A stretch of 64,000 nucleotides of DNA, taken from NCBI RefSeq assembly GCF_013344475.1, contig NZ_JABUOU010000010.1, positions 1 through 64,000 of the forward strand, read 5' to 3'. Positions 38,616 through 53,175 of the stretch are shown here, piece by piece (position 1 is the first letter of the stretch; the number at the start of each line of letters is the position of its first letter). This DNA comes from Martelella limonii (lineage in GTDB: Bacteria; Pseudomonadota; Alphaproteobacteria; Rhizobiales; Rhizobiaceae). Made by a program: the position numbers and the translations under genes. Below the pieces are notes generated by a model. It was not told where the DNA came from. It ran no database searches and saw only the letters and a list, made by a program, of their open reading frames with translations.

Positions 38616-39794
38616 TCAGTTGAACATTGCGCGCAGCGTGTCAGGATCGACCATGGTCGAGACCGAAACCTCGTCCGGCAGGGTCGGGTCGCACTGGTCG
38701 ACGGAGGCCTGCTTCATCGAGAACGGCACGTCGAGATTGGCGGGGATGTCCTCGCCCGCAAGCGACATCATCGCCGCCGTCAGCGCCAGGCGTGCCTGGT
38801 AGTTCTGGCCGGAGGAGTAGAAGATCTTGAAGTTCGGATTGTTGGCCGCCTTCATGTCGCAGAACAGACCCTGTTCGTCGGTGCGTAGCGCCACGACGAT
38901 GTCGAGCGGCTTGTTTGCCGACTGATAGGCACGCACGCCGCCGCGGAAGCCGTCGGCATAATCGTAGATGTAGCCGTCGATATTGTCGAAGCGCGACAGG
39001 ATCGCGGAAACGGCCGAGAACGTGCCTTCCTGGGTCCAGTTTGTGTCTTCCGTCGCAACGATGTCGAGACCGCCGATTGCGGCGGCTTCTTCCTTGGCGC
39101 AGCCCTGCCAGGTGGAAGACAGCGGGTTGCCGGGCGTGCCGCCGAGCGCTGCGATATTGGCAGCATCGGGATTGCCGGTGCGGATCGCCTTGACGAATTC
39201 CTTGCCCAGCTCGCAGATGTTTTCCGAGATATTGGTGACGTAGTCCTCGCCCGGCGTGCCGGCGACGGTGCCGTTATGGAGCACGACGGTGATGCCGGAT
39301 TCGGTGGCTTCGCGGATCGACGGCGCGAGCGCCTCGCCATGGTCGGCAAAGGTCACGATCACGTCGACGCCCTGGGCGATATAGGCGCGGAAATCCGAGA
39401 GTGCCTTGGCGGCGTCACCGCGCGCCGAGGTGTAGGAAATCTTGCCGATTTCCGGATAGGTGAGCGCCTGCATGATGAATTCCATCTTGGTGACTTCACG
39501 CCAGACATTCTCGCCGAAGCCATCGGCATAGGCGACCGTCAGTTCGCCGCCGGTGCCGGTGTCGCACTGGTTGTTCTTCCAGCATTCGATCGCCTTGGCG
39601 CGCATCTCGTCGCTGACGGGAAGCGCTGCCCGGTCGAAGGTCTCGATGAAGACCGGACCGACATCGGTGGTGCCGAGGCGCGATTGCAGCAGCTCTTCCG
39701 CCGTCTGGGCGCTTGCCGCCATCGGTGCGCCAAATGAAAGCAGAGCGAGCGCCGTTGCGCAGGCAGGCCCCTTCAGGCCGTTGAAAATGGTCAT
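38616..39794 (-). CDS. periplasmic substrate-binding protein of the fused CUT2 importer
   Basis: A 392-residue RbsB-like protein with signal peptide (ALALLSFGAPMAASA, cleavage near residue 29). Motifs: VAYADGFGENVWREV, IAQGVDVIVTFADHGEAL, GGTPGNPLSSTWQGC. GGGAGAGG precedes the ATG. First gene of the importer operon, 62 bp before the fused ATPase-permease. A GTAWTAC-type operator lies about 140 bp upstream. The ligand is unknown; CUT2 binding proteins usually take sugars, polyols or cyclitols, but the neighbouring enzymes point to a ring compound. Confidence 0.9.
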   Translation of the reverse strand: MTIFNGLKGPACATALALLSFGAPMAASAQTAEELLQSRLGTTDVGPVFIETFDRAALPVSDEMRAKAIECWKNNQCDTGTGGELTVAYADGFGENVWREVTKMEFIMQALTYPEIGKISYTSARGDAAKALSDFRAYIAQGVDVIVTFADHGEALAPSIREATESGITVVLHNGTVAGTPGEDYVTNISENICELGKEFVKAIRTGNPDAANIAALGGTPGNPLSSTWQGCAKEEAAAIGGLDIVATEDTNWTQEGTFSAVSAILSRFDNIDGYIYDYADGFRGGVRAYQSANKPLDIVVALRTDEQGLFCDMKAANNPNFKIFYSSGQNYQARLALTAAMMSLAGEDIPANLDVPFSMKQASVDQCDPTLPDEVSVSTMVDPDTLRAMFN

Positions 39795-39932
39795 TGCAGT
39801 TCCTCTCCCTTGTTTGCAGGCCGGCTCGAACCGGCCGGACGGATCGCCACCCGCTTTGCCTGTCTGGCATCAGCGGACAATCGATCCCGCGGCCGCGTTC
39901 CTCCGTCGGCCGCTCGTGATCACGAATACTAT

Positions 39933-39951
39933 ATTATGGTATTACGGTCAT
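39933..39951 (+). promoter_or_regulatory. GTAWTAC operator, site 1
   Basis: Centre GTATTAC at 39939-39945 with A/T-rich arms (ATTATG on the left, GTCAT on the right). Upstream of the binding-protein gene of the fused importer. One of six related palindromes in this locus; the GT-A/T-AC centre is of the type bound by GntR/FCD regulators. Confidence 0.65.
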
Positions 39952-40061
39952 ACGTCAATATGATTCAGATCCTCCCGCCCATGGCGATGGTCTGAATGTG
40001 CCAACGCCGCCGGCATTGCGGCGGCGTAAGATTCCCATTCCGGAAATTTTTGCCTCCGGCG

Positions 40062-40781
40062 CTACTGCGCCAGATAGCCGCCATCGATCACGAGTTCGGA
40101 ACCGGTGATGAAACTCGCCTCGTCGGATGCCAGGAACAGGCAGCCATTGGCGATCTCGCGTGGCGTGCCGGCCCGGCCCATCGGCGTCAAGCCGATCACA
40201 TAGGCATTGATTTCCGGGGCCTGCGCCTGGGTCAGCGGGGTATCGATGAAGCCCGGATGCACCGAATTGACGCGGATGCCGTCACCGACATAGGTGATCG
40301 CGGCATTCTTGGTCATCATGATCACGGCACCCTTGGAGGCGTGATAGGCGTGCGCCCCCGGCACGGCGCCCTTGCCCCAGATCGAGGAGATATTGATGAT
40401 CGAGCCGGATTTCTTCTCCTGCATGTGCGGAATGACCGCCCGCATGCCGAAGAACACGCCGTCCTGGTTGACGCCCAGCACCTTGCGCCAGTTCTCGGTC
40501 GAGCCGTCCGCGACCCCGTCATAAACGGCAATCCCGGCATTGTTCACCAGGCAGTCGATCCTGCCGTGCTCGGCGATGATCTGCCCCACCACCGACGTCC
40601 AGTCGTCTTCGTTCGCCACATCGAGCTTCACGCCGGAAACGCCTTCAGGATAAACCCCCTCAGGATTGCTGGTGCTCCCGGCATAGACGATGGCGCCTTC
40701 CTCGTGGAACCGCTCGACAATGCCGAGCCCGATCCCGCGTGAGGCGCCGGTCACCAGCGCAACTTTTCCTTCAAGCCTCAT
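40062..40781 (-). CDS. SDR-family oxidoreductase
   Basis: A 239-residue classical SDR. NAD(P) motif TGASRGIG lies at 12-19, NNAG follows, the catalytic Tyr-x3-Lys is in YHASK, and the C-terminus is ITGSELVIDGGYLAQ. ATG 40781 has GGGAGGAAAAGAT upstream, the same leader style as the hydrolase gene at 47349. It is divergent from the dehydrogenase-dioxygenase operon across a region holding operator site 2. Probably oxidises a ring alcohol or diol in the locus pathway (inference). Confidence 0.88.
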   Translation of the reverse strand: MRLEGKVALVTGASRGIGLGIVERFHEEGAIVYAGSTSNPEGVYPEGVSGVKLDVANEDDWTSVVGQIIAEHGRIDCLVNNAGIAVYDGVADGSTENWRKVLGVNQDGVFFGMRAVIPHMQEKKSGSIINISSIWGKGAVPGAHAYHASKGAVIMMTKNAAITYVGDGIRVNSVHPGFIDTPLTQAQAPEINAYVIGLTPMGRAGTPREIANGCLFLASDEASFITGSELVIDGGYLAQ

Positions 40782-40820
40782 ATCTTTTCCTCCCAATGAA
40801 ATAATCCGCGCCCTCCGCGC

Positions 40821-40845
40821 CATAATCCGGTATTACAGTATTATG
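40821..40845 (+). promoter_or_regulatory. GTAWTAC operator, site 2
   Basis: A 25-bp palindrome, CATAAT at 40821-40826 and ATTATG at 40840-40845, centred on GTATTAC (40830-40836). It lies in the divergent region between the SDR (minus) and the hydroxyquinol operon (plus), 40 bp from the SDR start, so it can control both. Confidence 0.72.
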
Positions 40846-40992
40846 ATCGCATGCGAAAGCCCTGCCCGTGAGGAGTTCAGCCGAAGTTTGGAAGCTGCTG
40901 TGACGAAAATTTTCCAGAATGGTCGAAACTGCTTGCCCCGCGATTTCGGCAAGGTCCTAGGGTCTGAGAAAATCAATCCTGGGAGGAAAGCC

Positions 40993-41868
40993 ATGTCTGC
41001 CAAAATCGGCTGGATCGGTGTGGGGAAAATGGGCGCGCCGATGGCGGGCCATCTGCTTGCGGCCGGCCACGACCTCACCGTCTTCGATACCAATGCCGTC
41101 AATGTCGCCGTCATGGAACACGCGGGTGCGCAGGTCGGCGATACGATCGAGGCGGTCGGACAAGCCTCTGAACTGGTGTTTACCTCAATCCCGGACGACA
41201 ACGCCCTTCAGGGCGTGATCAAGGCACTGGCCCCGGCGATGGCAAGTGGCACGATCCTGATCGATACCAGCACCGTCAGCCCGGACGCCTCGCGCAGCGC
41301 GGCGGAGGTGTTATCGGCACATGGCATTCGTTATCTGCGCGCGCCGGTTTCAGGCAGCACCACCATTGCCGCCGCAGCAGGCCTGACCGTGCTGGCCTCG
41401 GGCGACCGCAGCGCCTGGGAGGAAGCGGAGCCGCTGATCGCCCGCTTCTCCGGCGAGCGCTTCTATCTCGGTCCCGCCGATGAGGCGCGGTTCATGAAGC
41501 TGGTGCTGAACACGCTGGTGGGCGGAGCTGCGTCGCTGCTGGGCGAGGCGATCCTGCTCGGCGAGCGCGGCGGGCTTGACCGCGCCGCCATGATGGACGT
41601 CATACTGAAAAGCGCCGTTGCCTCGCCTTTGCTCGGCTACAAGCGCGAGACCGTGGTGGTGGATGCGACCGTGCCTGCCTTCAGGCTCGACCAGATGGTC
41701 AAGGACTTCTCGCTGATCCTCGATGCGGCGCATACCGAGAAGATTGATATGGACGTGAGCGCCCTTATCCTGAAACAGTACCGGGCGGCGGTGGAAGCAG
41801 GCTGGCAGGGGCGCGATTTCTTCGCGCTGGTCGACTGGATCAGGGATACGTCGTCGCAACCCGGCTGA
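40993..41868 (+). CDS. NAD(P)-dependent 3-hydroxyisobutyrate-dehydrogenase-family oxidoreductase
   Basis: A 291-residue beta-hydroxyacid dehydrogenase (HIBADH/GarR-type): IGWIGVGKMGAPMAGHLLAAG at the N-terminus binds the dinucleotide, DTSTVSPD and APVSGS bind substrate, and the catalytic Lys is in RFMKLVLNTLVGG. GGGAGGAAAG precedes the ATG; the open frame upstream is non-coding and contains the operator. First gene of an operon with the winged-helix/SBP protein, maleylacetate reductase and hydroxyquinol dioxygenase. Tartronate semialdehyde reductase-type activity is possible, substrate unproven. Confidence 0.87.
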   Translation: MSAKIGWIGVGKMGAPMAGHLLAAGHDLTVFDTNAVNVAVMEHAGAQVGDTIEAVGQASELVFTSIPDDNALQGVIKALAPAMASGTILIDTSTVSPDASRSAAEVLSAHGIRYLRAPVSGSTTIAAAAGLTVLASGDRSAWEEAEPLIARFSGERFYLGPADEARFMKLVLNTLVGGAASLLGEAILLGERGGLDRAAMMDVILKSAVASPLLGYKRETVVVDATVPAFRLDQMVKDFSLILDAAHTEKIDMDVSALILKQYRAAVEAGWQGRDFFALVDWIRDTSSQPG

Positions 41869-41897
41869 TACGCCGGTCTTTGGGAGGAGACCGCGGA

Positions 41898-43616
41898 ATG
41901 ACCGAATATGAGATGCTGCGCATCATCGATTTCCTGAACAGCCTCACCAGGCCGTTCGGAACGGTCGTGGCCGACAGCAGGGGCGACCCGGTCTTCCAGC
42001 TGACGCTTTCCCTGATGCAGGCGCATCTGACCGGCCGCGACATCACCAAGAGCGCGCTTGCCGAAAGCGGCGGCGTGCCGTTCGTCACCGCCATGCGCCA
42101 TGTCACCCAGATGATCGAGGACGGAAACATCGTGCTCGATCCGCGCACGGCCACGGGCCGCAGCTTCTATGTCCGTCCGAGCGAGCAGTTGCAGCAGCGC
42201 TTCATGGATTACTGCCGCAGCGTCAAGGCCACGATCGGGCGTACCTTCGGCACCATCACCTCGGATGAGGACGTCGACGAGTTCTATTTCGGCGGCTCCA
42301 ACTTCTCGCGCGTGGTGATCCCGCCGCCGCGGCTGCAGAGCCACCACGCCTCCGGCGCCAAGGAATTGCGGTTCCTGTTCCGGAAGGACAATTATTTCGA
42401 GGCGCTGCGCAACACCTGGGCGGATCTGCGCGCCAATATCGGCTCGATCCAGAATGTCGACCTGTTGCCGCTGCCGCAACTTTACGACCGGATCATCGAA
42501 AACGGCGCCCGCAAGAGCTCCGAATTCGATGTCATCTGCGTCAACAAGCCATGGGTCGGCGATCTGGTCGATCGCGGTCTGGTGCGCCCACTCGATCCGC
42601 TGATTGCCGAAAGCCGGATCCAGCCGCTCGATTTCTCGCCGATGGTGTGGGATTCGGGCGCCTGGCAGGGCACGCAATATGGCGTGCCGATCTACACCAC
42701 GGTCGAGCTGTTCCTGGCGCGACAGGACATTTTCGAACGCGCCGGCCATGCCTATCCGCGCACCTTCGACCAGGTCATCGATGCGGCGAAGGCGCTGCAG
42801 CGCCCGTCCGAGGGGCTTTATGGCGTCGCCTGGAATGCGGCGAAGGGGATGCCGATCGCCAGCACCTTCATGGTTCTGCTCGGCTCCTGCAACACCGCCT
42901 GCCTCAACCTGCCGCGCCGGCGCATCCACATGCCGATGCATGATCTGGTCTCCGACAGGCTGCGCGGCCAGGTGCTGACCGATCAGGCCTTCGAGGTGCT
43001 GGACTACATGCACCGCCTCGTCGGCGTGTCGGAGCCGAACATTCTGACCATGGACTGGGACCGCCGCGTGGACGCGCTTCTGACCGGCAAGGCGGTCATG
43101 GGCTATTGCTGGTCGATGCATGCAGCCCTGATGGAATATCACGTCAAATCCGTGGTGTCCCGGCGCATGCGCTATCTCGAACAGCCGAAGGGCAGGGCCG
43201 GCATGCACGCGAACCCCGTTGGCGGCTTCCATCTGATGATCCCGTCCAATCTCGATGAAGAGCGCGTGGCGCTCGCCTTCGATGCGATCAGCTGGATGTG
43301 TTCTCCGGAAGTGATGAAGGAGCATGTCTCGGAAGGCTTTCCGGTGGCGCCGCGCTTTTCGGTCGCAGCCGACCCGGAAGCGGCGGCAAGCTCGCCGGTC
43401 ATGGGCGTCGTCGCAAGGCTGCTCAAATCCAACTCGGTCTGCACCTGGTCGCGCCCGGCCGTGCCCGAATATCACGGGATCGAGGCCGTGCTCGGCCGCG
43501 AGATCCATGCCGCATTGCGCGGCGACATATCCGACCGCGAGGCGCTGGAGCGCGCCCAGCGCGCGATCGATGGCCTGCTTTCGACCCGTCAGCTCGCCGC
43601 CGAAAACTATGCCTGA
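41898..43616 (+). CDS. cytoplasmic winged-helix/substrate-binding-protein fusion, probable ligand-responsive regulator
   Basis: A 572-residue protein without signal peptide. Residues ~34-93 look like a winged helix: helix around FQLTLSLMQAHL, turn and recognition region GRDITKSALAESGGVPFV-TAMRHVTQMIEDG, then a wing ending in GRSFYVRPS. From ~156 to ~560 the sequence reads as an SBP_bac_1 (MalE-like) fold (YDRIIENGARKSSEFDVICVNKPWV, YGVPIYTTVELFLARQDIFERAG, GFHLMIPSN, MKEHVSEGFPVAPRF). I infer a transcription factor using a solute-binding fold as ligand sensor, not a transporter component. It lies 29 bp after the dehydrogenase and 21 bp before maleylacetate reductase. Confidence 0.72.
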   Translation: MTEYEMLRIIDFLNSLTRPFGTVVADSRGDPVFQLTLSLMQAHLTGRDITKSALAESGGVPFVTAMRHVTQMIEDGNIVLDPRTATGRSFYVRPSEQLQQRFMDYCRSVKATIGRTFGTITSDEDVDEFYFGGSNFSRVVIPPPRLQSHHASGAKELRFLFRKDNYFEALRNTWADLRANIGSIQNVDLLPLPQLYDRIIENGARKSSEFDVICVNKPWVGDLVDRGLVRPLDPLIAESRIQPLDFSPMVWDSGAWQGTQYGVPIYTTVELFLARQDIFERAGHAYPRTFDQVIDAAKALQRPSEGLYGVAWNAAKGMPIASTFMVLLGSCNTACLNLPRRRIHMPMHDLVSDRLRGQVLTDQAFEVLDYMHRLVGVSEPNILTMDWDRRVDALLTGKAVMGYCWSMHAALMEYHVKSVVSRRMRYLEQPKGRAGMHANPVGGFHLMIPSNLDEERVALAFDAISWMCSPEVMKEHVSEGFPVAPRFSVAADPEAAASSPVMGVVARLLKSNSVCTWSRPAVPEYHGIEAVLGREIHAALRGDISDREALERAQRAIDGLLSTRQLAAENYA

Positions 43617-43637: not shown

Positions 43638-44708
43638 ATGACCATCAATGATGACTTCGTCTTCAAGGGAATTCCGACCCGCGTGCTGTTCGGCGCCGGC
43701 ACGCTCGCCCGCGCCCGCGACGAGGTGGAAAAGCTCGGCGGCAAGGCCGCGCTCGTGCTCTCCACGGAACATCAGAGTGCCGAAGCCGAACGCATGGTGG
43801 ACGATCTCGGCGCTCTTGCCGCCGGCCGTTTCTGCGAGGCGGCGATGCACACGCCGACGGATGTGACGGAAAAGGCGCTCGGCGTCGCCACATCGGTTGG
43901 CGCCGATTGCGTGGTCTCGATCGGCGGCGGCTCCACGATTGGTCTCGGCAAGGCGATCGCGATCCGCACCGGCATGCCGCATCTTGCGATCCCCACCACC
44001 TATGCCGGATCGGAAATGACCGACATTCTCGGCGAGACCAAGGATGGCAGAAAGACGACGCGGCGCGATCCGGCGATCCGGCCGAACACCGTGATCTATG
44101 ACGTGTCGCTGACGCTTTCGCTGCCGAAGGCGCTCACCGTCACCTCGGCGCTGAATGCCGCCGCCCATGCGGTGGAAGCCCTTTATGCGCCGGATGGCAA
44201 TCCGATCGTCTCCCAGATGGCGGCTTCGGCACTGGAGGCCCTCAATCGCGGCCTGCCGCTGATCATGAAGGACGGAGCTGACCTCGAGGGCCGGCGCCAG
44301 ACATTCTACGGCGCCTGGCTCTCGGCGATCGTGCTGGGTCAGGCGGCCATGGGCCTTCACCACAAGCTCTGCCATGTGCTCGGCGGCTCGTTCAACCTGC
44401 CCCATTCCGAAACCCATGCAATCCTGCTGCCGCATACGGCCGGCTTCAATGCCGGCGCGGCGCGCGCGGCGCTCGCTCCCGCAACCGATCTCTTTGGCGA
44501 TGATCTCGGCGGCGGTCTCTGGGATTTCGCGCAATCTGTCGGCGCGCCACTCCGGCTGGCCGATTACGGCTTTACCGAGGCCGATATTCCCCGCGCTGCC
44601 GAGATCGCCGGAACCGACCGCTACGACAATCCCCGCGATTTCGATGCCGCCGACATGACACGCATCCTGACGGCGGCGCTCAATGGCGACCGCCCCGAGA
44701 CATTCTGA
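43638..44708 (+). CDS. maleylacetate reductase
   Basis: A 356-residue iron-containing-alcohol-dehydrogenase-family enzyme of the maleylacetate reductase branch, reducing maleylacetate to 3-oxoadipate. NAD motif GGGSTIGLGKAIA, then PTTYAGSEMTDI, and His-rich metal-site regions HAVEALY, GLHHKLCHVLGG and HSETHAI. Placed 11 bp before hydroxyquinol dioxygenase, whose product is its substrate; the pair is diagnostic of the hydroxyquinol route in resorcinol, chlorophenol and resorcylate degraders. Confidence 0.92.
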   Translation: MTINDDFVFKGIPTRVLFGAGTLARARDEVEKLGGKAALVLSTEHQSAEAERMVDDLGALAAGRFCEAAMHTPTDVTEKALGVATSVGADCVVSIGGGSTIGLGKAIAIRTGMPHLAIPTTYAGSEMTDILGETKDGRKTTRRDPAIRPNTVIYDVSLTLSLPKALTVTSALNAAAHAVEALYAPDGNPIVSQMAASALEALNRGLPLIMKDGADLEGRRQTFYGAWLSAIVLGQAAMGLHHKLCHVLGGSFNLPHSETHAILLPHTAGFNAGAARAALAPATDLFGDDLGGGLWDFAQSVGAPLRLADYGFTEADIPRAAEIAGTDRYDNPRDFDAADMTRILTAALNGDRPETF

Positions 44709-44719
44709 AAGGCCGAGAC

Positions 44720-45616
44720 ATGCACGACCAGACAAGCGAAAGCGGATATTTCACCGAGGCGGAATCCGCCGATGTGGTGATTGCCCGCAATCAGAAAGCC
44801 ACGGACCAGCGCCTTGCCGAGGTGATGGCGGTGATCACCCGCCACCTCCACGCGGCGGTCAAGGAGATCGAACCCACGGAAGAGGAGTGGATGAAGGCGA
44901 TCCAGTTCCTGACGGCGACGGGACAGATCTGCAATGAATGGCGACAGGAATATATTCTCCTGTCCGATATTCTCGGCGTCTCCATGCTCGTCGATGCCAT
45001 CAACAACCGCAAGCCATCGGGGGCGAGCGAATCGACCGTTCTCGGCCCCTTCCATGTCGACGATGCACCGCTGATGGAGATGGGCGCGGATATCTGCCTT
45101 GATGGCAAGGGCGAGCAGATGGAGGTGCGCGGCACGATCCGCGATCTCGACGGAAATCCGCTGCCGAACGTGCTGATCGATGTCTGGCAGGCCAATGACG
45201 AGGGGTTCTACGACGTCCAGCAGCAGGGCATACAGCCGGAATTCAACCTGCGCGGCCGGTTTCGCACCGGACCGGATGGCACCTACCGCTTCTGGGGCGT
45301 CCGGCCGAAATATTACGCGATCCCCGATGACGGGCCGGTGGGCAAGCTTCTCGGCGCGCTCGGCCGTCATCCCTATCGTCCGGCCCATCTCCACTACATT
45401 CTGTCGGCTGCGGGCTACAAGACGCTGACCACCCATATCTTCGATCCCGATGATCCCTACATCCATTCCGATGCGGTGTTCGGGGTGAAGGAAAGTCTGA
45501 TGGCAGCCTTTCAGAAGGTCGACAGTCCGGATGAGATGGCCGCATCAGAGCGCGAGGGCTGGTTCTGGCGCGTCGAGCACGATTTCATCCTCGAGGACGC
45601 AGGCCGGAACGGATAG
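44720..45616 (+). CDS. hydroxyquinol 1,2-dioxygenase (intradiol)
   Basis: A 298-residue intradiol dioxygenase cleaving 1,2,4-trihydroxybenzene to maleylacetate. The N-terminal helical dimerisation domain (to ~105) is followed by STVLGPFHVDDAP and the catalytic barrel. Fe(III) ligands by family alignment: Tyr164 in GFYDVQ, Tyr199 in KYYAIPDDGPVG, His223 and His225 in RPAHLHYIL. Last gene of the plus-strand operon. Catechol 1,2-dioxygenase is the alternative, but length, motif spacing and the reductase partner favour hydroxyquinol. Confidence 0.91.
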   Translation: MHDQTSESGYFTEAESADVVIARNQKATDQRLAEVMAVITRHLHAAVKEIEPTEEEWMKAIQFLTATGQICNEWRQEYILLSDILGVSMLVDAINNRKPSGASESTVLGPFHVDDAPLMEMGADICLDGKGEQMEVRGTIRDLDGNPLPNVLIDVWQANDEGFYDVQQQGIQPEFNLRGRFRTGPDGTYRFWGVRPKYYAIPDDGPVGKLLGALGRHPYRPAHLHYILSAAGYKTLTTHIFDPDDPYIHSDAVFGVKESLMAAFQKVDSPDEMAASEREGWFWRVEHDFILEDAGRNG

Positions 45617-45708
45617 CGAGAGCAGCGGTTCCGGCTTTCACGGAAAGGCGGAACCGCGCTCTGTTTACACGACATGCCGGGCGGCGGATCGCGTCGCCCG
45701 GAGCAGCA

Positions 45709-46440: not shown

Positions 46441-47349
46441 TCAGGGAAGGAGGCGCGGATTGACCGGCTCGGCGTGGAAACGGAAGGTGCCGTCCTCGGC
46501 CCGCACCATGCGGCCAAGCCCCGGATAGGGAAAGTGATAGCCGTGATAGCGGATGTTCTCGTCGGCCACCCTGGCGAAGATCGCGGCCTTGGCATCGGCG
46601 CCCATTTGGGGGTCGCTGTCGTAATCCATGTGGAAGAACCATTCGGGATGGTAGGGGTCGTAGATCTGGTGATGGGCGAGATCGCCCGTGAAGATCACCT
46701 TCTCGCCCTCGCTTTCGAACAGGAAGGCGGTCTGGCCGGCGCTGTGGCCTGCGGCAGACAGCGTGGTTACCCCTGGCAGGATGGTGTCGCCGATCTCGAA
46801 CAGATGCAGCCTCTCCCTGTAAGGTTCGACCGCCTCGATCGTGCCTGCCGTCCAGTCCTTGCGGAAATCATTGCGGGAAAGGTTCTCCTTGTCGGTCCAT
46901 TCGTCCCAGTCGGTCTTCGAGACATAAAGCGCGGCATTGGGAAAGGCCGGTTTGCCATCCGGGAGAAGCAGGCCGAAGGAATGGTCGGGGTGAAGATGGG
47001 TCATCAGCACCACGTCGATATCCGCGGCATCGATGCCTGCGGCCTTCATGTTTTCCTGAAGCCGGCCCATCTTGTCACCGAACATCACCGATGTCTGGCC
47101 CATGCCGGCATCGATCAGGATCAGCTTTTCGCCGGTATTGACGACGACCGGGTTGAGGTCCATCGGAATGTGATCGGCAGGCAGGAGGTGTTCCCGCTGC
47201 AGCGCGGCCATGCGTTCGGGCGGCGCGTTCGGAAAGATGCCTTCATAGCCGTGATGGATGTAGCCATCCCAGAGGGCGGTGCATTCCAGTCCGCCGATAT
47301 TGAACCTGTGCCAACCCGCATTTTGGGTCTTTTGTTGCCTCGCAGCCAT
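46441..47349 (-). CDS. metallo-beta-lactamase-fold hydrolase (lactonase-like)
   Basis: A 302-residue zinc hydrolase with THLHPDHSFG (His-x-His-x-Asp-His), AGHSAGQT, and FTGDLAHHQ as further ligands. ATG 47349 has GGGAGGAAAAGA upstream; the longer open frame would run through the operator region. It belongs to the branch holding AHL lactonases and esterases. In a locus with a Baeyer-Villiger-type monooxygenase, an alcohol and an aldehyde dehydrogenase, opening of the lactone product is the obvious role (inference). Confidence 0.85.
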   Translation of the reverse strand: MAARQQKTQNAGWHRFNIGGLECTALWDGYIHHGYEGIFPNAPPERMAALQREHLLPADHIPMDLNPVVVNTGEKLILIDAGMGQTSVMFGDKMGRLQENMKAAGIDAADIDVVLMTHLHPDHSFGLLLPDGKPAFPNAALYVSKTDWDEWTDKENLSRNDFRKDWTAGTIEAVEPYRERLHLFEIGDTILPGVTTLSAAGHSAGQTAFLFESEGEKVIFTGDLAHHQIYDPYHPEWFFHMDYDSDPQMGADAKAAIFARVADENIRYHGYHFPYPGLGRMVRAEDGTFRFHAEPVNPRLLP

Positions 47350-47668: not shown

Positions 47669-48364
47669 ATGGCAGGTTCCACAGTCATCGCACGCCAGGC
47701 GGCGCCGCTTCGCCAGCAGGTCGTGCGGCTTGTCCGCGAGGATATTCTCGAAGGCGCGCTGGTGCCCGGCCAGCGGCTGATCGAAAGTGCGCTTTGCGAG
47801 GCTTATGGCGTGTCGCGCACCGTCATCCGCGAGGCGCTGCGCCAGCTCGAATCCGAGCACCTGATCAGCGTCGTGCCCAATCTCGGCCCGATCGTGACCG
47901 TGCTGACCGAGAAGGAAATCCGTTCGATCTATGTCGTCCGGGCAGCCCTCGAAGGCCTTGCCGGACGGCTTTTCGCGCAGAATGCCACGGACAGCCAGTG
48001 CGCCAAGCTCAAGAACCTCTCGAAGCGCCTCGACAAGGACTATCGCAAGGGCAATGTCGAAAGCCGCGAGCAGATCAAGGCCGAGTTCTACACGCTGTTG
48101 ACCGAGGGTACGGACAATCTCGTGCTCGCCGAAAACCTCGCCAGCATGCATGCCCGCATCGCGATGTTCCGCCGCTTCGCCTTTGTCGACGAAAGCCGCA
48201 TCGAACCGTCGATTGCCGAGCTTGAGGCAATCATCGAGGCCGCTGCCGTCACCCGCGACGGCGATGCCGCCGCTGCCGCCTGCGAGCATCACATCACCCT
48301 TGCAGGGGAACTCGCGATCGCCGAATACATGAAGCGCAACAAGGCGATCCTCGGCGAGGACTAA
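47669..48364 (+). CDS. GntR-family (FCD-domain) transcriptional regulator
   Basis: A 231-residue regulator: N-terminal GntR winged helix (QQVVRLVREDILEGALVPGQRLIESALCEAYGVSR... TVIREALRQLESEHLI) and a helical FCD ligand domain with metal-binding His residues (HARIAMFRRFAF, CEHHITLAGE). ATG 47669 has GGAGAG upstream; the open frame before it runs through operator site 4. Divergent from the lactonase-SDR pair. It is the natural candidate to bind the GTAWTAC palindromes, since FCD-type GntR proteins favour GT-(N)-AC centred operators. Confidence 0.88.
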   Translation: MAGSTVIARQAAPLRQQVVRLVREDILEGALVPGQRLIESALCEAYGVSRTVIREALRQLESEHLISVVPNLGPIVTVLTEKEIRSIYVVRAALEGLAGRLFAQNATDSQCAKLKNLSKRLDKDYRKGNVESREQIKAEFYTLLTEGTDNLVLAENLASMHARIAMFRRFAFVDESRIEPSIAELEAIIEAAAVTRDGDAAAAACEHHITLAGELAIAEYMKRNKAILGED

Positions 48365-48470: not shown

Positions 48471-48503
48471 GCCTGGATCCTCGGGACAAGCCCGAGGATG
48501 ACC
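48471..48503 (+). repeat. dispersed palindromic repeat, copy 2
   Basis: GCCTGGATCCTCGGGACAAG continues into CCCGAGGATGACC, the same element as at 34826-34857. It lies between the convergent GntR and alcohol dehydrogenase genes. Confidence 0.82.
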
Positions 48504-48607
48504 CTTTGGGGGAAGCGGGGCCCGTCGGCGATACCGGTTGGGCCAGTTCACTGACCCACCCTTTCGCGGTGGGAGCCGTCACATGGCGTCTGCCGCCAGC
48601 GAGGCTT

Positions 48608-49840
48608 CTATTCCCAGAAGCTTCTGTCGCCGGCAACGCCGCGGGCGAGCACCTTGCGCACGGCCTCTTCCGTCAATGGCGCCGGATTGTTGAGCACGAG
48701 GCGGCTCGCCTTGATGGCCGATCCGGCGATCCTGTCGAAATGGCTCTCATCAATGCCGAGTGCCGTCAGCTCCAGCGGCGTTCCGGTGGCTTCGAGCAGC
48801 GCCTCGATGCGGATGATTGCGGCGCGGGCCTGTTCTTCCTGCGAACTGCCCGGTGCGGCAACATCGAGCGCCTGTGCAATGCCTGCAAATTCTGCCGTGG
48901 CATAGGGCAGGTTCAGCCGCATCACATAAGGCAGAAGCGCGCCGACGCCGAAGCCGTGCGGCGTGTGGCCGATCGCGGCCATCGGGCTCTGGATCGCATG
49001 GGCGGCCGCCGTGCCGGTGGTGTTGATCGCCATGCCGGCGCAATAGGCGGCAAACATCACATCGGCGCGCGCTTCAAGGTCGGACGGCGTTGCGACGACC
49101 CGTTCCAGCGAACGGTTCATCAGCTTCAGCCCGTTCTCGCAGAACATGTCGGTGATGCGGTTCTTGCCGACATAGATCTGGGTCGCGATCTGCTCCGGCG
49201 TCGGGTTCTTGGGGCGCGCGGTGTAGGCTTCGACCAGGTGCGACAGCGCATCGGCAGCGGTTGCCGCCGTCAATCCCTTCGGGCAGGTCAGCGTCAGTTC
49301 CGGATCGATGATGGCGATTGCCGGCTCGATATGGGCATCCGCCACGGCCATCTTCATGCCGGTCTCCTCGTCGAAGACGATGGCAAGGCTCGTCACTTCC
49401 GCGCCGGTGCCGCCGGTGGTCGGGATGGTGATCACCGGAATGCAGGGGCCGGGCACGGCGAATTCGCCGAAATAATCGCGCACATCGCCGCCATGGGCCA
49501 GCACGGCGGAAGAGGCCTTGGCGAGATCCATGCAGGAGCCGCCGCCGACGCCGATGATGACATCCACCGCCCCGGCCATCGACGCCACGTCCATGACATT
49601 GCGGCGCGGCAGGTCGGGCTCGGCCCGGTCGAAGACCGTGACGGCGAGCCCGCTGTCACGCAGGTCTTTTGCCAGCGCCTCGAACTCCGGCGTGGTTGCC
49701 ATGCGCGCATCGGTAACCACCAGCGCGCGCGTGCCGAAGCCCTTGGCATAGCGGCCAAGCTGGCGCCGCTGGCCGGGGCCGAACAGCACCGTTTTTGGCT
49801 GGCGCACGAGGCCCAGCCCAAGCGCATTCTCCATGCCCAT
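48608..49840 (-). CDS. iron-containing alcohol dehydrogenase
   Basis: A 410-residue group III alcohol dehydrogenase. NAD motif GVGGGSCMDLAKA, then PTTGGTGAEVTS; metal ligands expected at Asp and His in DALSHLVEAY and the His of GHTPHGFGVGALLPYV. GMAINTTGTAAAHAIQSP is typical of the family. The start overlaps the aldehyde dehydrogenase stop by one base (TGATG), making an ALDH-ADH operon. Probably oxidises an omega-hydroxy intermediate to the aldehyde that ALDH then oxidises (inference). Confidence 0.89.
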   Translation of the reverse strand: MGMENALGLGLVRQPKTVLFGPGQRRQLGRYAKGFGTRALVVTDARMATTPEFEALAKDLRDSGLAVTVFDRAEPDLPRRNVMDVASMAGAVDVIIGVGGGSCMDLAKASSAVLAHGGDVRDYFGEFAVPGPCIPVITIPTTGGTGAEVTSLAIVFDEETGMKMAVADAHIEPAIAIIDPELTLTCPKGLTAATAADALSHLVEAYTARPKNPTPEQIATQIYVGKNRITDMFCENGLKLMNRSLERVVATPSDLEARADVMFAAYCAGMAINTTGTAAAHAIQSPMAAIGHTPHGFGVGALLPYVMRLNLPYATAEFAGIAQALDVAAPGSSQEEQARAAIIRIEALLEATGTPLELTALGIDESHFDRIAGSAIKASRLVLNNPAPLTEEAVRKVLARGVAGDRSFWE

Positions 49841-51324
49841 CAGATCAGCGCCTCATCAACCGTTACCGCCATGTATTTCGCTTCCATGAACTCGTAGATG
49901 CCATCCTGTCCGGCCTCGCGTCCGACGCCCGATGCCTTGGTGCCGCCGAACGGCGCCTTGGGATCGGCCATGATGCCGCGATTGATGCCGACCATGCCGA
50001 ATTCGAGTTTCTCCCCGAAGGTGAGCGCACGCGAGAGGTTTTTCGTGAATACGTAGGATGCGAGCCCGAAATCGCTTTCATTGGCAAAGGCCAGCGCTGC
50101 TTCCGGTCCATCGATGGCGAAGATCGTCGCGATCGGCGCAAACAGCTCGTTCGAGCACATCACCGCGTTGCGGCCTTCATAGCGCACCACGGTCGGTTCG
50201 AAGAAGAAGCCGTCGCCTTCGACCGCATGCCCGCCGGCAAGAAGCGTGCCGCCGGCATCGGTCAACTGTTTCAGCGTCTCGCTCAGCCGGTCGCGCTGCT
50301 TTGCCGAGATCATCGGGCCGACATCGACGGCGCCCATGCCGTCGCCGACGGTCAGCGCCTTGACCTTGGCCACGAACTTCTCCGTGAATTCGGCCTCGAC
50401 CTTGCTGTCGACGATGATCCGGTTGGCGGCAACGCAGGCCTGGCCGGCATTGCGGAACTTGCAGATGATCGCCTGCTCGACCGCGAGATCGATATCGGCA
50501 TCGTCAAGCACGATGAACGGGCCGTCCCCGCCAAGCTCCATCGAACAGCTCAAGATGTTGCGCGCGCCCTGTTCCATCAAGAGGCTGCCGACGCGGGTCG
50601 AGCCGGTGAAGGATACCTTGCGAAGCCGCTTGTCCTTCAAGAGCGGCTCGGACACGCCGGATGAACTGGTGGTATGCAGCAGGTTGGCAACGCCTGCCGG
50701 GAAGCCTGCATCGTGCAGAACCTGGGTAAACAGCGCGCCGGTCAGCGGCGTTTCCTGCGCGGTCTTGGTGATCGTGGTGCAGCCGGCGGCAAGGGCGGCG
50801 CCCGCCTTGCGCACGATCATCAGCAGCGGGAAGTTCCACGGCGTGATCAGCAGGCAGGGGCCGATCGGCTGGTGCTTGACCACCACCCGGAAACCGCCAT
50901 TGGAACTGTCGGAATAGGAGCCGTGGATATGCGCGCTCTGTTCGGCAAACCACAGCAGGAAATCCGCTGAAAGCAGGAATTCGGCGCGCGATTCCGTCAG
51001 CGGCTTGCCGCTTTCAAGCGTCATGACCTTGGTGAAGGCTTCCTCGCGCTCGAGCATCAGCCGGTAGGCCGCGTGCATCAGCTTCGCGCGGGCGCGCGGC
51101 GCGACCGATGCCCATTGGGGCTGGGCCTTCGCCGCCGCATCGAGCGCTTTGATCGCGTCTTCGGAGCCTGCATGGGAGACGGTCGCAAACGGCTTGCCAT
51201 TGGCCGGGTTCGTCACTGAAAAGGTGGACGGCCCCTCGACCCAGGCGCCATTGATATAGAGCCTTGTATCCGGCATCAGGGCGGCGTCGGCCGCGTCGAT
51301 CCGGCCCGGACTTTGTGTGTTCAT
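49840..51324 (-). CDS. NAD(P)-dependent aldehyde dehydrogenase (succinate-semialdehyde dehydrogenase-like)
   Basis: A 494-residue aldehyde dehydrogenase. ITPWNFPLLMIVRKAGAALAAG carries the catalytic Asn, FTGSTRVG the cofactor loop, MELGGDGPFIVLDDAD the general-base Glu, and the nucleophilic Cys is in NAGQACVAANRI. C-terminal EFGMVGINRGIMADPKAPFGG resembles the SSADH/GabD branch. ATG 51324 has AAGGA upstream. First gene of the ALDH-ADH operon and divergent from the monooxygenase across a region with two operators. Confidence 0.91.
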   Translation of the reverse strand: MNTQSPGRIDAADAALMPDTRLYINGAWVEGPSTFSVTNPANGKPFATVSHAGSEDAIKALDAAAKAQPQWASVAPRARAKLMHAAYRLMLEREEAFTKVMTLESGKPLTESRAEFLLSADFLLWFAEQSAHIHGSYSDSSNGGFRVVVKHQPIGPCLLITPWNFPLLMIVRKAGAALAAGCTTITKTAQETPLTGALFTQVLHDAGFPAGVANLLHTTSSSGVSEPLLKDKRLRKVSFTGSTRVGSLLMEQGARNILSCSMELGGDGPFIVLDDADIDLAVEQAIICKFRNAGQACVAANRIIVDSKVEAEFTEKFVAKVKALTVGDGMGAVDVGPMISAKQRDRLSETLKQLTDAGGTLLAGGHAVEGDGFFFEPTVVRYEGRNAVMCSNELFAPIATIFAIDGPEAALAFANESDFGLASYVFTKNLSRALTFGEKLEFGMVGINRGIMADPKAPFGGTKASGVGREAGQDGIYEFMEAKYMAVTVDEALI

Positions 51325-51368
51325 GTCATGCGATCCTTCGTGCAAGCGCGCAACAGCGGCTACTCCTC

Positions 51369-51387
51369 AATATCGTAATACGGTATT
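51369..51387 (+). promoter_or_regulatory. GTAWTAC operator, site 5
   Basis: AATATCGTAATACGGTATT, centre GTAATAC at 51375-51381, near-perfect palindrome. It lies 45 bp upstream of the aldehyde dehydrogenase start. Confidence 0.75.
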
Positions 51388-51440
51388 ATAGGAATATGAT
51401 GATGACAAGGCCGATTTCGTCAAATGCCGCGATTGACGAT

Positions 51441-51459
51441 AATACCGTAATACCATATG
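51441..51459 (+). promoter_or_regulatory. GTAWTAC operator, site 6
   Basis: AATACCGTAATACCATATG, centre GTAATAC at 51447-51453, arms less symmetric. 72 bp from site 5 (centre to centre), 112 bp upstream of the monooxygenase start. Confidence 0.68.
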
Positions 51460-51570
51460 AGTGTCCCGACAAGATCGCCGGGACGGAGGCCGCGAGGGAG
51501 TGCGGACCCGACAATACGCCCCGGCGGCGGCCTTGCGCCGCAGGTTTTTACGAGAATGGGAGGTTCCATC

Positions 51571-53175
51571 ATGAACGCGGTATCGCACAATCATCACGAG
51601 CTCGATGTGGCCATCATCGGCACGGGCGTCGGAGGCCTTTACGCGCTCCACCGCATGCGCAATGTGCTCGGCATGAACGCCGAGGCCTTCGACGATGCGG
51701 ATGGCGTCGGCGGCACATGGTACTGGAACCGCTATCCCGGCTGCAGGGTCGATACCGAATCGACCGTCTATACCTATTCCTTCGACCTCGACATGTTCCA
51801 GAACTGGGAATGGTCGGAGCGCTATGCCAAGCAGCCGGAAGTGCTGAACTATCTCAACGCCGTTGCCGACAAGCACGATCTGAAGCGCTCGATCCATTTC
51901 CGCACCCGCATCACCCGGGCCGAATGGCAGGAAGACGAGAAGCGCTGGCTTCTGACCACCGCAAACGGCGATACCGTGAAGGCGAAATATGTGATCGAGG
52001 CCGTCGGCCTGCTGTCGTCTTCCTACGCGCCGCAATTTCCCGATCAGGACAAGTTCAAGGGCGAAGTGCTGCTCGCCTCCAAATGGCCGAAGGACGCGCC
52101 GGATCTTGCCGGAAAGCGCGTCGGCGTGGTCGGGACCGGGTCCACAGGCATTCAGATCATCACGGCGCTTGCCGACAAGGTCGGCCATCTCCACGTGCTG
52201 CAGCGCACCGCGCAATGGGTGGTTCCGCTCGGCATCGGCCCGTTTCCTGCCGAAACCCGCGAAAAGATCAAGTCCGATCCCCATGGCTTCCGCGACTGGG
52301 CGCTCAGCACCGCTGCGGTTTTCGGCTTCGATGAAAGCACGGTCTCGGCGTTGGAGGTCGACGAGGAAGAACGCAGGCGCGTCTATGAAAAGGCATGGCA
52401 GAAGGGCAATGGCTTCAGCTTCCTGCTCGAGACCTTCTCCGACATTCCGGTGACGGCGGAAGCCAACAAGACGGCCACGGACTTCATCAAGTCGAAGATC
52501 GACGCGATCGTCGATGACCCCGAGGTTGCCGACCGGCTGACGCCGCGCGACTATTACGCCAAGCGCCCGCTTGCGGCTGACAATTATTACGAGACCTATA
52601 ACCGCGACAATGTCACGCTCCACGACGTCAAGGCCCATCCGATCGAGCGCTTTACCGAAAACGGGCTGATGATCGACGGCAAGGAACTCGCCCTCGACGT
52701 GGTGATCATGGCGACCGGGTTCGACGCGATGACCGGCAATTACCTGAAGATCGACACGATCGGCCGCGATGGCGTGCGCCTCAAGGATGCCTGGAAGGAC
52801 GGTCCGCGCGCCTATGCCGGCATGTCGATTGCCGATTTCCCGAACCTCCTGATGGTCTTCGGCCCCTTCAGCCCGTTCACCAGCCAGCCGCTGGTCCATG
52901 AATGGCAGGTCGACTTCCTGAGCGACATGATCAGGCGGGCAGAAGACGGCAACGGCATCATCGAGACCAGCAAGGAGGCGCAGGATGGCTGGGTGCGCAT
53001 CTGCCAGGAGGGCATGGCCGGAACCCTGTTCCAGGTCACCGACAGCTGGATCAACGGCGCAAACATTCCCGGAAAGCCCCGCACCTCGATGTGGTACATG
53101 GGCGGCATGGGCAATTACATGAGCGAGATGAACGAGATCCGCGATGATGGCTATCGCGGCTTCCGGATCGGCTGA
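51571..53175 (+). CDS. flavin-containing Baeyer-Villiger-type monooxygenase with atypical fingerprint
   Basis: A 534-residue class B flavoprotein monooxygenase. FAD motif GTGVGG (17-22), the BVMO-type GGTWYWNRYPGCRVD (47-61), NADPH motif GTGSTG (188-193), and ATGFDAMTG near the C-terminus all fit the cyclohexanone-monooxygenase family. The type I BVMO fingerprint FxGxxxHxxxW(P/D) is present at 162-173 as FKGEVLLASKWP, with Leu168 where His is expected. ATG 51571 has GGGAGG upstream. It could insert oxygen into a cyclic ketone or act as a hydroxylase or oxidase; the missing His makes this uncertain. Confidence 0.85.
   Translation: MNAVSHNHHELDVAIIGTGVGGLYALHRMRNVLGMNAEAFDDADGVGGTWYWNRYPGCRVDTESTVYTYSFDLDMFQNWEWSERYAKQPEVLNYLNAVADKHDLKRSIHFRTRITRAEWQEDEKRWLLTTANGDTVKAKYVIEAVGLLSSSYAPQFPDQDKFKGEVLLASKWPKDAPDLAGKRVGVVGTGSTGIQIITALADKVGHLHVLQRTAQWVVPLGIGPFPAETREKIKSDPHGFRDWALSTAAVFGFDESTVSALEVDEEERRRVYEKAWQKGNGFSFLLETFSDIPVTAEANKTATDFIKSKIDAIVDDPEVADRLTPRDYYAKRPLAADNYYETYNRDNVTLHDVKAHPIERFTENGLMIDGKELALDVVIMATGFDAMTGNYLKIDTIGRDGVRLKDAWKDGPRAYAGMSIADFPNLLMVFGPFSPFTSQPLVHEWQVDFLSDMIRRAEDGNGIIETSKEAQDGWVRICQEGMAGTLFQVTDSWINGANIPGKPRTSMWYMGGMGNYMSEMNEIRDDGYRGFRIG

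What the first reader, a model, noticed from the sequence alone, without database searches (positions are those of the whole stretch)
38616..53175. Composite locus combining hydroxyquinol cleavage with a Baeyer-Villiger/lactonase/ADH/ALDH module
One arm (dioxygenase, maleylacetate reductase) is the known hydroxyquinol route to 3-oxoadipate. The other (SDR, flavin monooxygenase, lactonase-like hydrolase, Fe-ADH, ALDH) parallels cyclohexanol-to-adipate degradation. No resorcinol or phenol hydroxylase that would make hydroxyquinol is present, and import is by a sugar-type CUT2 system. A cyclic polyol or hydroxylated alicyclic ketone converted through both arms would be a new pathway.
Basis: inference. 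Interest (0 to 1): 0.75.

Follow-up and report, generated by a model that had tools for sequence, protein, structure and literature searches.

The report
Two adjacent catabolic cassettes, not one
Two separate sets of genes for eating ring-shaped molecules happen to sit side by side in this Martelella-type bacterium; one of them is a recurrent, apparently undescribed set that may turn a sugar-like ring into an aromatic ring before breaking it open.

Summary
The genes are as described, but they do not form one composite pathway. In congener G688 both arms exist as syntenic DNA blocks 419-435 kb apart. In congener G683 the BVMO arm is itself split (164 kb) and no module-type dioxygenase (HQD) was found. 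G016, another genus, has the whole BVMO arm and no HQD at E<=1e-60. At the thresholds used, none of 24 other module rows, 65 other HQD loci or 8 sister operons shows BVMO-arm genes in the stretches held. Each arm has its own regulator, and a strong hairpin lies between them.

Arm A is larger than reported (30922-45616). Its core (CUT2, Gfo/Idh, YciI, beta-HAD, HTH-SBP regulator, MAR, HQD) recurs in Rhizobiales and Rhodobacterales, without matches to three resorcinol-type hydroxylase proteins (0 of 29 loci, against 42 of 65 for the FAD monooxygenase). A sister operon carries an inositol 2-dehydrogenase above its curated cut-off (8 of 8). Best reading: arm A imports a cyclitol-like polyol and dehydrates it to hydroxyquinol, as quinate goes to protocatechuate. 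Arm B is a cyclohexanol-type pathway with a metallo-beta-lactamase-fold lactonase. Substrates are inferred; two unlinked FAD hydroxylase-like genes leave an alternative open.

The parts
30922..32367 (+). Arm A: amidohydrolase (TRZ/ATZ-type, NF006056 541 bits over cut-off 391); likely start ATG 30964
   Evidence: Pfam Amidohydro_1, NCBIfam, start codon; 92% in the arm A region of G688; 69% in G117, 39% Bosea, 35% Salipiger
32370..33344 (+). Arm A: CobW-type metallochaperone GTPase
   Evidence: Pfam cobW; 80% in G688, 35% in G117
33341..33637 (+). Arm A: YciI-family small protein, overlapping the Gfo/Idh gene by 4 bases
   Evidence: Pfam YCII; in 22 of 25 module rows, 0 of 65 other HQD loci
33634..34638 (+). 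Arm A: Gfo/Idh/MocA oxidoreductase; best curated model IolG but under its cut-off
   Evidence: Pfam; TIGR04380 116.9 of 355 bits; in 21 of 25 module rows, 0 of 65 other HQD loci; Ala at the IolG Asp position in 21 of 21 aligned orthologs
34958..36010 (-). Arm A: CUT2 permease
   Evidence: Pfam BPD_transp_2
36007..38583 (-). Arm A: CUT2 ATPase fused to a permease (858 aa)
   Evidence: Pfam ABC_tran x2 plus BPD_transp_2; AraG/XylG/RbsA-like, under cut-offs
38616..39794 (-). Arm A: periplasmic sugar-type binding protein, divergent (21-26% to three other module binding proteins)
   Evidence: Pfam Peripla_BP_4; XylF 44 of 390 bits; alignment A5
40062..40823 (-). SDR1; travels with arm A in G688 (88%)
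   Evidence: Pfam adh_short_C2; inside the arm A block of G688; a 65% homologue lies in the arm B cluster of G016
40993..41868 (+). Arm A: beta-hydroxyacid-dehydrogenase-like oxidoreductase (open frame from 40690; likely start ATG 40993)
   Evidence: Pfam NAD_binding_2; start codon; in 19 of 25 module rows
41898..43616 (+). Arm A: one-component regulator, N-terminal winged HTH plus SBP_bac_1-type sensor
   Evidence: Pfam SBP_bac_1; residues 31-80 modelled at block pLDDT 85-92, whole model poor (48.8); Foldseek to sugar-binding SBPs at low TM-score; orthologs near HQD in relatives
43638..44708 (+). Arm A: maleylacetate reductase
   Evidence: PDB: 3jzd (named only iron-containing ADH) 365 bits, then two chains named maleylacetate reductase at 350 bits; Pfam Fe-ADH
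44720..45616 (+). Arm A: hydroxyquinol 1,2-dioxygenase
   Evidence: PDB 6-chlorohydroxyquinol dioxygenase 334 bits, HQD 1tmx 260, best catechol dioxygenase 135; Y164 Y199 H223 H225 present; tree
45617..45680 (.). Strong hairpin between the convergent ends of arm A and arm B; terminator-like shape, though the terminator scan did not list it
   Evidence: -32.9 kcal/mol, z -5.3; not in the list
45709..46437 (-). Arm B: SDR2 (cyclic-alcohol dehydrogenase candidate)
   Evidence: Pfam; 84-86% in two congeners, 67% in G016
46441..47349 (-). Arm B: metallo-beta-lactamase-fold lactonase-like hydrolase (open frame from 47481; likely start 47349)
   Evidence: Pfam Lactamase_B; PDB organophosphorus/dihydrocoumarin hydrolases 155-170 bits; AidB 142 of 360 bits; HLHPDH motif
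47669..48364 (+). Arm B: GntR-FCD regulator (open frame from 47510; likely start 47669)
   Evidence: Pfam FCD and GntR; 90-92% in congeners
48608..49840 (-). Arm B: Fe-dependent alcohol dehydrogenase
   Evidence: Pfam Fe-ADH
49840..51345 (-). Arm B: aldehyde dehydrogenase, succinate-semialdehyde-dehydrogenase-like
   Evidence: Pfam Aldedh; TIGR01780 468 of 646 bits
51568..53175 (+). Arm B: Baeyer-Villiger monooxygenase (open frame from 51457; likely start 51568)
   Evidence: PDB 8wkc 1045 bits, Thermocrispum CHMO 553 bits; 90-91% in two congeners, 74% in G016

Best explanation
Two independent catabolic cassettes lie side by side in a Martelella-type genome. Arm A (30922-45616) is a conserved hydroxyquinol module with no linked hydroxylase. 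A sugar-type CUT2 importer takes up a cyclitol-like (probably deoxy- or amino-deoxy-) polyol; Gfo/Idh, SDR1 and the beta-HAD oxidise it; water (or, in this variant with its amidohydrolase, possibly ammonia) is eliminated until the ring aromatises to hydroxyquinol, with YciI or, in relatives, Dabb as candidate elimination or tautomerisation enzymes. The dioxygenase then makes maleylacetate, the reductase makes 3-oxoadipate, and PcaF elsewhere in the genome finishes. Arm B (45709-53175) is a cyclic alcohol/ketone pathway (SDR, BVMO, lactonase, Fe-ADH, ALDH to a dicarboxylate) under its own GntR regulator. Shown: gene families, conservation, separability of the arms, absence of the tested hydroxylases from the module loci. 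Inferred: ring cleavage of hydroxyquinol itself, and every substrate.
For: Separability: in G688 window 34962-45595 (84% DNA identity) and 30848-34644 (83%) lie at C1:1826221-1836891 and 1809272-1813093, while 45713-53178 (79-83%) lies at C1:1383134-1390734. G683 has BVMO-ALDH-FeADH at about 870 kb, GntR-MBL-SDR2 at about 1038 kb, and only a 59% HQD elsewhere. G016 has all six arm B genes at 63-74% and no HQD at E<=1e-60. Arm B genes at the thresholds used: 1 of 25 module rows (the window), 0 of 65 other HQD loci, 0 of 8 sister operons, in stretches of up to about 10 kb each side. Module: YciI 22, Gfo/Idh 21, regulator 20, beta-HAD 19, CUT2 ATPase 23 of 25 rows against 0, 0, 0, 0 and 4 of 65. 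Hydroxylase queries: 0 of 29 and 0 of 8, against 42 of 65 for the FAD monooxygenase. Sister operon: IolG above cut-off in 8 of 8; in the one member tested (L059) permease above the GguB cut-off and binding protein 456.5 of 460 for ChvE. The HQD tree needs at least 8 label changes for module HQDs and nests the window HQD among HQDs mostly from loci with the FAD monooxygenase, so the ring-cleavage substrate is probably plain hydroxyquinol. PcaF is in the genome.
Against: The substrate is not identified. The window's Gfo/Idh scores only 116.9 of 355 against IolG and lacks the Asp (catalytic in IolG, recalled) that the sister IolG keeps. The window lacks the two zinc dehydrogenases and the PRISE-type SDR of many relatives. 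No enzyme of proven dehydratase function is in the arm. The genome has two FAD_binding_3 hydroxylase-like proteins on another contig (C35; one above the PRK08132 subfamily cut-off), which could in principle make hydroxyquinol from a phenol, and hydroxylases unlike my three queries would be missed in the module loci. Cassette adjacency in this one strain could still reflect selection for co-use.
Confidence: 0.52

Rival explanations
1. One reading: one composite pathway in which a cyclic polyol or hydroxylated alicyclic ketone is processed through both the BVMO arm and the hydroxyquinol arm.
For: The arms touch (92 bases between HQD and SDR2); both end in C6 dicarboxylates that could meet at 3-oxoadipyl-CoA (inference); in G688 both arms are kept.
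Against: Arms 419-435 kb apart in G688; arm B without the module HQD in G683 and G016; module genes without arm B nearby in 24 other rows; separate regulators and a hairpin between them. A ring opened through a BVMO lactone would not then become hydroxyquinol (inference).
Confidence: 0.06
2. Arm A degrades a phenolic glycoside: CUT2 imports it, Gfo/Idh makes the 3-keto-glycoside, the aglycone is eliminated, and a small ABM/Dabb/YciI-type protein or an unlinked flavin hydroxylase provides hydroxyquinol.
For: Gfo/Idh relatives include DgpA-type proteins; the Loktanella locus has a putative quinol monooxygenase beside the module; the sister operon pairs Gfo/Idh with a xylose-isomerase-like TIM barrel; two unlinked FAD_binding_3 proteins exist in the genome.
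Against: None of three hydroxylase queries matched in 29 module loci; the sister operon's Gfo A is an IolG equivalog and the one transporter tested is of the monosaccharide type.
Confidence: 0.24
3. Arm A takes up an aromatic that is already trihydroxylated (free hydroxyquinol or a near analogue), the oxidoreductases serving side reactions.
For: HQD and MAR alone would suffice for hydroxyquinol; module and resorcinol-type HQDs are intermixed in the tree.
Against: Does not explain the several conserved oxidoreductases and a CUT2 sugar importer; the resorcinol-type loci opened use branched-chain-type importers.
Confidence: 0.12

Closest known systems
Resorcinol / gamma-resorcylate-type hydroxyquinol clusters (e.g. 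Rhizobium sp. NZLR1 p2, Martelella sp. AD-3 plasmid; the substrate name is recalled)
   Same: HQD and maleylacetate reductase; window HQD nests among HQDs of such loci
   Different: They carry an FAD monooxygenase, LysR and a branched-chain-type ABC importer; arm A has none of these but CUT2, Gfo/Idh, YciI and an HTH-SBP regulator
Inositol catabolism (IolG; IolM scyllo-inosose 3-dehydrogenase)
   Same: CUT2 uptake and Gfo/Idh; the sister operon has an IolG equivalog, and Rhizobium sp. WL3's module has a Zn-ADH whose best model is IolM (148.7 of 450 bits)
   Different: Ends in aromatic ring cleavage; no IolD-type gene among the arm A genes scanned
Quinate/shikimate to protocatechuate route (recalled)
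   Same: Logic proposed for arm A: a hydroaromatic polyol is oxidised and dehydrated to an aromatic, then cleaved by an intradiol dioxygenase towards 3-oxoadipate
   Different: Different enzymes, no carboxylate on the ring, product hydroxyquinol
Cyclohexanol/cyclohexanone (chn-type, recalled) degradation; Roseibium aggregatum plasmid cluster
   Same: Arm B has BVMO, SDR, Fe-ADH and SSADH-like ALDH, as annotated in the Roseibium cluster
   Different: Lactonase is a metallo-beta-lactamase-fold protein instead of an alpha/beta hydrolase; GntR regulator; BVMO clade has Leu or Val where the recalled fingerprint has His

Membership tests
Hydroxyquinol lower pathway (HQD plus MAR) | Intradiol dioxygenase closer to hydroxyquinol than catechol enzymes, with Tyr-Tyr-His-His iron ligands (ligands recalled) | tested here: met
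   334/260 bits against 135; Y164 Y199 H223 H225
Hydroxyquinol lower pathway (HQD plus MAR) | Maleylacetate reductase beside it | tested here: met
   350 bits to PDB chains named maleylacetate reductase; the top chain (365 bits) is named only iron-containing ADH
Resorcinol-type hydroxyquinol cluster | Flavin hydroxylase making hydroxyquinol in the cluster | tested here: not met
   No match to three query proteins in the window or module loci; in the genome only weak matches, two of them FAD_binding_3 proteins on another contig
Inositol (iol) catabolism | IolG inositol 2-dehydrogenase above curated cut-off | tested here: not met
   Window Gfo/Idh 116.9 of 355 bits; met only in the sister operon, 8 of 8
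Inositol (iol) catabolism | IolE and IolD in the locus | tested here: not met
   No AP_endonuc_2 or thiamine-diphosphate protein among the arm A genes scanned
Cyclohexanone (chn-type) pathway | Type I BVMO with FxGxxxHxxxW(P/D) fingerprint (recalled) | tested here: inconclusive
   Overall BVMO/CHMO homology strong but the fingerprint His is Leu
Cyclohexanone (chn-type) pathway | Lactonase, alcohol and aldehyde dehydrogenases in the cluster | tested here: met
   MBL-fold lactonase-like, Fe-ADH, ALDH, together with the BVMO in G688 and G016 but split in G683
Cyclohexanone (chn-type) pathway | Activity on cyclohexanone or another cyclic ketone | not testable with these tools
   Needs enzyme assay
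Single composite pathway (finding) | Arms linked in relatives | tested here: not met

The most novel reading that the evidence does not exclude
Arm A and its sister operon define a recurrent, undescribed route in which cyclitols (deoxyinositols or aminodeoxyinositols) are imported by sugar transporters, oxidised and dehydrated to hydroxyquinol without any oxygenase, and then degraded by aromatic ring cleavage: a cyclitol counterpart of the quinate pathway. The invariant Asp-less Gfo/Idh would be an elimination or aromatising enzyme rather than an ordinary dehydrogenase.
Probability: 0.4. Interest if true: 0.8.

Novelty: new variant of a known kind. Interest (0 to 1): 0.55.

Why it matters
If arm A works as proposed, bacteria would make an aromatic ring from a sugar-like polyol in order to break it, which would link cyclitol metabolism to the 3-oxoadipate pathway and explain why HQD genes sit beside sugar importers in plant-associated, soil and marine bacteria. 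It gives a testable function to a conserved set of oxidoreductases without assigned roles and to an HTH-SBP regulator. The separability result stops a false composite pathway from being proposed.

Tried and rejected
Composite pathway: rejected on synteny. SBP_bac_1 protein as a second transporter binding protein: rejected, N-terminal winged HTH and no signal peptide by eye (no tool run for this). The structure model as a whole is poor (mean pLDDT 48.8, 4 sequences), so only the HTH part and the Pfam match are relied on; the Foldseek matches have TM-scores near 0.2-0.3. SDR1 as an arm B gene (first suggested by 65% identity in G016): dropped because it lies in the arm A block of G688. Plasmid search with the lactonase: no match at E<=1e-70. 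Plasmid search with the BVMO: 116 records, all under 60% identity. Class-wide BVMO search: only the own genome at E<=1e-170 among 385.

Literature: searches. No listed title or abstract start concerned HQD with CUT2, Gfo/Idh or cyclitols, PDB 8wkc, or a BVMO/MBL-lactonase cluster. The lists were capped: 15 of 19, 0, 2 of 2, 12 of 58, 10 of 19, 2 of 2, 1 of 1, 12 of 50 and 6 of 269 papers shown. Only PMC11467972 was looked into (passages).

Counts with limits. The table uses loci chosen partly because they held module genes, so it shows co-occurrence, not frequency; its 25 rows include the window, and 2 rows (G117, G275) have no HQD at the threshold. The less biased count is: of 11 other genomes (297 searched, own included) with the regulator at E<=1e-130, 6 have HQD within 14 kb on the same contig. 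G174 is split between contigs; G117, G160, G275 and G283 (where the match covers residues 170-563 only) are not linked. Of 9 plasmid records with the Gfo/Idh ortholog I examined 7 (6 opened for it, and R. tumorigenes NZ_CP117265 opened earlier); all 7 hold HQD and MAR nearby. In one search some of the 29 module loci come from one genome (G688 three, G174 two, R. rhizoryzae two), and two of the 65 other loci (L051, L052) are truncated sister operons. In the tree one row (L071) was dropped for a stop codon, and L004 is a long branch. Some queries began two residues inside the likely start (lactonase, beta-HAD, against 108 and 109); this should not affect the matches.
Full report
Observation. The window belongs to a genome of 4.54 Mb in 40 contigs. 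Two genomes of its genus have contigs with the lengths of Martelella plasmids (NZ_CP014276, 314776 bp; NZ_CP066788, 246197 bp) and 100% identity over the 10 kb compared, so the genus is Martelella. All genes named in the finding exist with the families stated. The dioxygenase scores 334 and 260 bits against solved chlorohydroxyquinol and hydroxyquinol dioxygenases, and 135 against the best catechol dioxygenase; the positions of the iron ligands (recalled) are Tyr164, Tyr199, His223 and His225. The Fe-ADH-family protein next to it matches 3jzd (named only iron-containing ADH, 365 bits) and then two chains named maleylacetate reductase (350 bits). The BVMO is closest to PDB 8wkc (1045 bits) and then to Thermocrispum cyclohexanone monooxygenase (553 bits).

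What the finding left out. Left of the CUT2 genes lies a tightly packed run, amidohydrolase (30922), CobW (32370), YciI (33341) and Gfo/Idh (33634). It is counted as arm A because the run is conserved in the same genomic region as the rest of arm A in a congener, 13 kb away, and because YciI and Gfo/Idh orthologs sit with HQD in most module rows. The SBP_bac_1 protein (41898-43616) begins with a winged helix-turn-helix (residues 31-80 at block pLDDT 85-92), shows no signal peptide by eye, and has a sensor part like sugar-binding proteins. I read it as a one-component regulator.

The arms are separable. Same-genus genome G688 carries both, as clean syntenic DNA blocks: window 34962-45595 maps to C1:1826221-1836891, 30848-34644 to C1:1809272-1813093, and 45713-53178 to C1:1383134-1390734. 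They are 419-435 kb apart, and block edges fall close to the HQD and SDR2 gene ends. Same-genus genome G683 has BVMO-ALDH-FeADH at C1:869864-874437 and GntR-MBL-SDR2 at C1:1038370-1041086, and its only HQD at E<=1e-60 is a 59% one in a locus with the FAD monooxygenase, at 387 kb. G016, of another genus in the family, has all six arm B genes together at 63-74% identity and no HQD at E<=1e-60. In the genus, the lactonase is in 3 of 13 genomes, the BVMO in 3 of 13, and arm A's HQD (at least 90%) in 2 of 13. Across 25 module rows (window included), 65 other HQD loci and 8 sister operons, arm B genes at the thresholds used occur only in the window (stretches of up to about 10 kb each side of HQD for the named loci). 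Each arm has its own regulator, and a hairpin of -32.9 kcal/mol (z -5.3) lies between the convergent ends (the consensus terminator scan did not list it). The adjacency is therefore, as far as seen, a feature of this strain, not of a pathway. Misassembly at the junction cannot be tested without reads.

Arm A is a recurrent module. Relatives often add two Zn-dependent dehydrogenases (18 and 19 of 25), a PRISE-type SDR (13), a ketopantoate-reductase-like protein (12) and Dabb (6). The window is a variant that lacks these and has the amidohydrolase and CobW instead, as does G688. G117 has amidohydrolase, CobW, YciI, beta-HAD and regulator together, but its only HQD is a distant one (45%) on another contig. 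Bosea and Salipiger have amidohydrolases at 39% and 35%. Seven of the nine plasmid records with the Gfo/Idh ortholog were examined, and all seven have HQD and MAR nearby.

No linked hydroxylase. Three proteins from a resorcinol-type locus (FAD monooxygenase, acyl-CoA-dehydrogenase-like monooxygenase, flavin reductase) gave 0 matches in 29 module loci and 0 in 8 sister operons, while the FAD monooxygenase matched 42 of 65 other HQD loci (36 strongly), the second 12 and the third 8. Hydroxylases unlike these three would be missed. Against this reading, the own genome has four weak matches to the FAD monooxygenase, two of which are FAD_binding_3 proteins on contig C35, one above the cut-off of the general PRK08132 subfamily. 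They are unlinked to arm A and far from the resorcinol-type enzyme, but an unlinked hydroxylase cannot be excluded.

Why a cyclitol. A second, collinear operon occurs in Burkholderia, Caballeronia, Paraburkholderia, Cupriavidus, Collimonas, Novosphingobium, Thioclava and Pseudomonas amygdali genomes (8 loci): HQD, xylose-isomerase-like TIM barrel, Gfo/Idh A, Gfo/Idh B, CUT2 genes (in Thioclava before HQD), Dabb (8 of 8) and MAR (7 of 8; none in the held part of the P. amygdali contig). Gfo A exceeds the curated cut-off of the inositol 2-dehydrogenase model in 8 of 8. In L059, the one member tested for each, the TIM barrel's only solved relatives at E<=0.001 are Lmo2234 and IolI, the permease exceeds the GguB cut-off and the binding protein just misses ChvE's (456.5 of 460). 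In the arm A module the best curated model of the window's Gfo/Idh is IolG (116.9 of 355 bits) and that of Rhizobium sp. WL3's Zn-ADH is IolM (148.7 of 450), both below cut-off. By stoichiometry (inference), a deoxyinositol C6H12O5 minus 2H minus 2H2O gives hydroxyquinol C6H6O3. Chemical precedent for inosose dehydration to a polyhydroxybenzene exists (myo-inosose to 1,2,3,4-tetrahydroxybenzene under acid; PMC11467972 section 19, passages seen).

Why hydroxyquinol is the ring-cleavage substrate. In a tree of 102 HQDs the module label needs 9 changes, at least 8 forced by starred branches, and the window and G688 HQDs sit in a supported set (100/99) of 45 rows of which 34 come from loci with the FAD monooxygenase. 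Module and resorcinol-type HQDs appear to have been exchanged, which is most simply explained by the same substrate (inference). PcaF above cut-off is elsewhere in the genome.

Open point on the Gfo/Idh. In 21 of 21 module orthologs aligned the stretch before the His (GMTATGIH) puts Ala four residues before it, where the sister IolG has Asp; that this Asp is catalytic in IolG is recalled. The Lys (EKP) and His are kept. The enzyme may therefore not be a plain alcohol dehydrogenase; an elimination or dihydrodiol-type aromatising role is possible but untested. Gfo/Idh relatives in the PDB list include 4,5-dihydroxyphthalate dehydrogenase and dihydrodiol dehydrogenase.

Arm B. SDR2, MBL-fold lactonase-like protein, GntR-FCD, Fe-ADH, SSADH-like ALDH and BVMO. 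The Roseibium aggregatum plasmid cluster has a 51% BVMO with SDR, Fe-ADH, SSADH-like ALDH, alpha/beta hydrolase and 3-oxoadipyl-CoA thiolase, which I read as a cyclohexanone route. Arm B differs in the lactonase and in the BVMO clade (window, G683, G016, 8wkc), where the recalled fingerprint His is Leu or Val. That in G683 the MBL/SDR2/GntR genes lie 164 kb from the BVMO means their functional tie is itself not certain. G688's BVMO matches in two frames.

Verdict. The genes are real; the composite pathway is not supported; arm A is a conserved hydroxyquinol module without a linked hydroxylase, whose best explanation is cyclitol aromatisation (probability about 0.40 for the strong form). I found no description of it in the listings of searches, which cover open-licence papers only and were partly capped.

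Noticed in passing
41898-43616: Regulator with N-terminal winged HTH and an SBP_bac_1-type sensor, apparently cytoplasmic; more distant relatives (about 30%) in other family genomes, several beside an SDR.
   Followed up: partly
L059:10001-19494 and seven further loci (L050, L053, L054, L056, L060, L062, L066): Collinear operon HQD-TIM-IolG-Gfo-CUT2-Dabb-MAR in Burkholderiales, Novosphingobium, Thioclava and Pseudomonas amygdali (MAR not seen in the last).
   Followed up: yes
33634-34638: All 21 module Gfo/Idh orthologs aligned have Ala in place of the Asp four residues before the catalytic-type His.
   Followed up: partly
51568-53175: BVMO clade with Leu/Val in place of the fingerprint His, shared with PDB 8wkc.
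   Followed up: partly
G688 C1:1383140-1384755: BVMO of the congener matches in two frames.
   Followed up: no
5432-15299: A second CUT2 sugar system (ATPase, two permease-like frames, Peripla_BP_4) with a LacI-type regulator, followed by MBL-fold, 3-hydroxyacyl-CoA dehydrogenase and histidinol-dehydrogenase-like genes.
   Followed up: no
23994-27254: 1086-aa protein with two SBP_bac_3 stretches and a GGDEF domain.
   Followed up: no
53277-55202: phaR-like regulator and phaA-like thiolase beside arm B; not beside either arm in the G688, G683 and G016 stretches, though 43-46% thiolases occur in L042 and L074.
   Followed up: partly
CP070278 (plasmids collection): A plasmid labelled Dysgonomonadaceae bacterium zrk40 matches a Martelella lutilitoris plasmid at 100% over the 10 kb searched; probably a mislabelled or mixed assembly.
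   Followed up: no
L140:22611-25002: In Loktanella the module lies beside annotated shikimate dehydrogenase and a sugar-isomerase/4-hydroxyphenylpyruvate-domain protein, a quinate-type pair by recall.
   Followed up: no
L184, L185 (own genome contig C35): Two FAD_binding_3 hydroxylase-like proteins about 30 kb apart on another contig; substrates unknown.
   Followed up: partly
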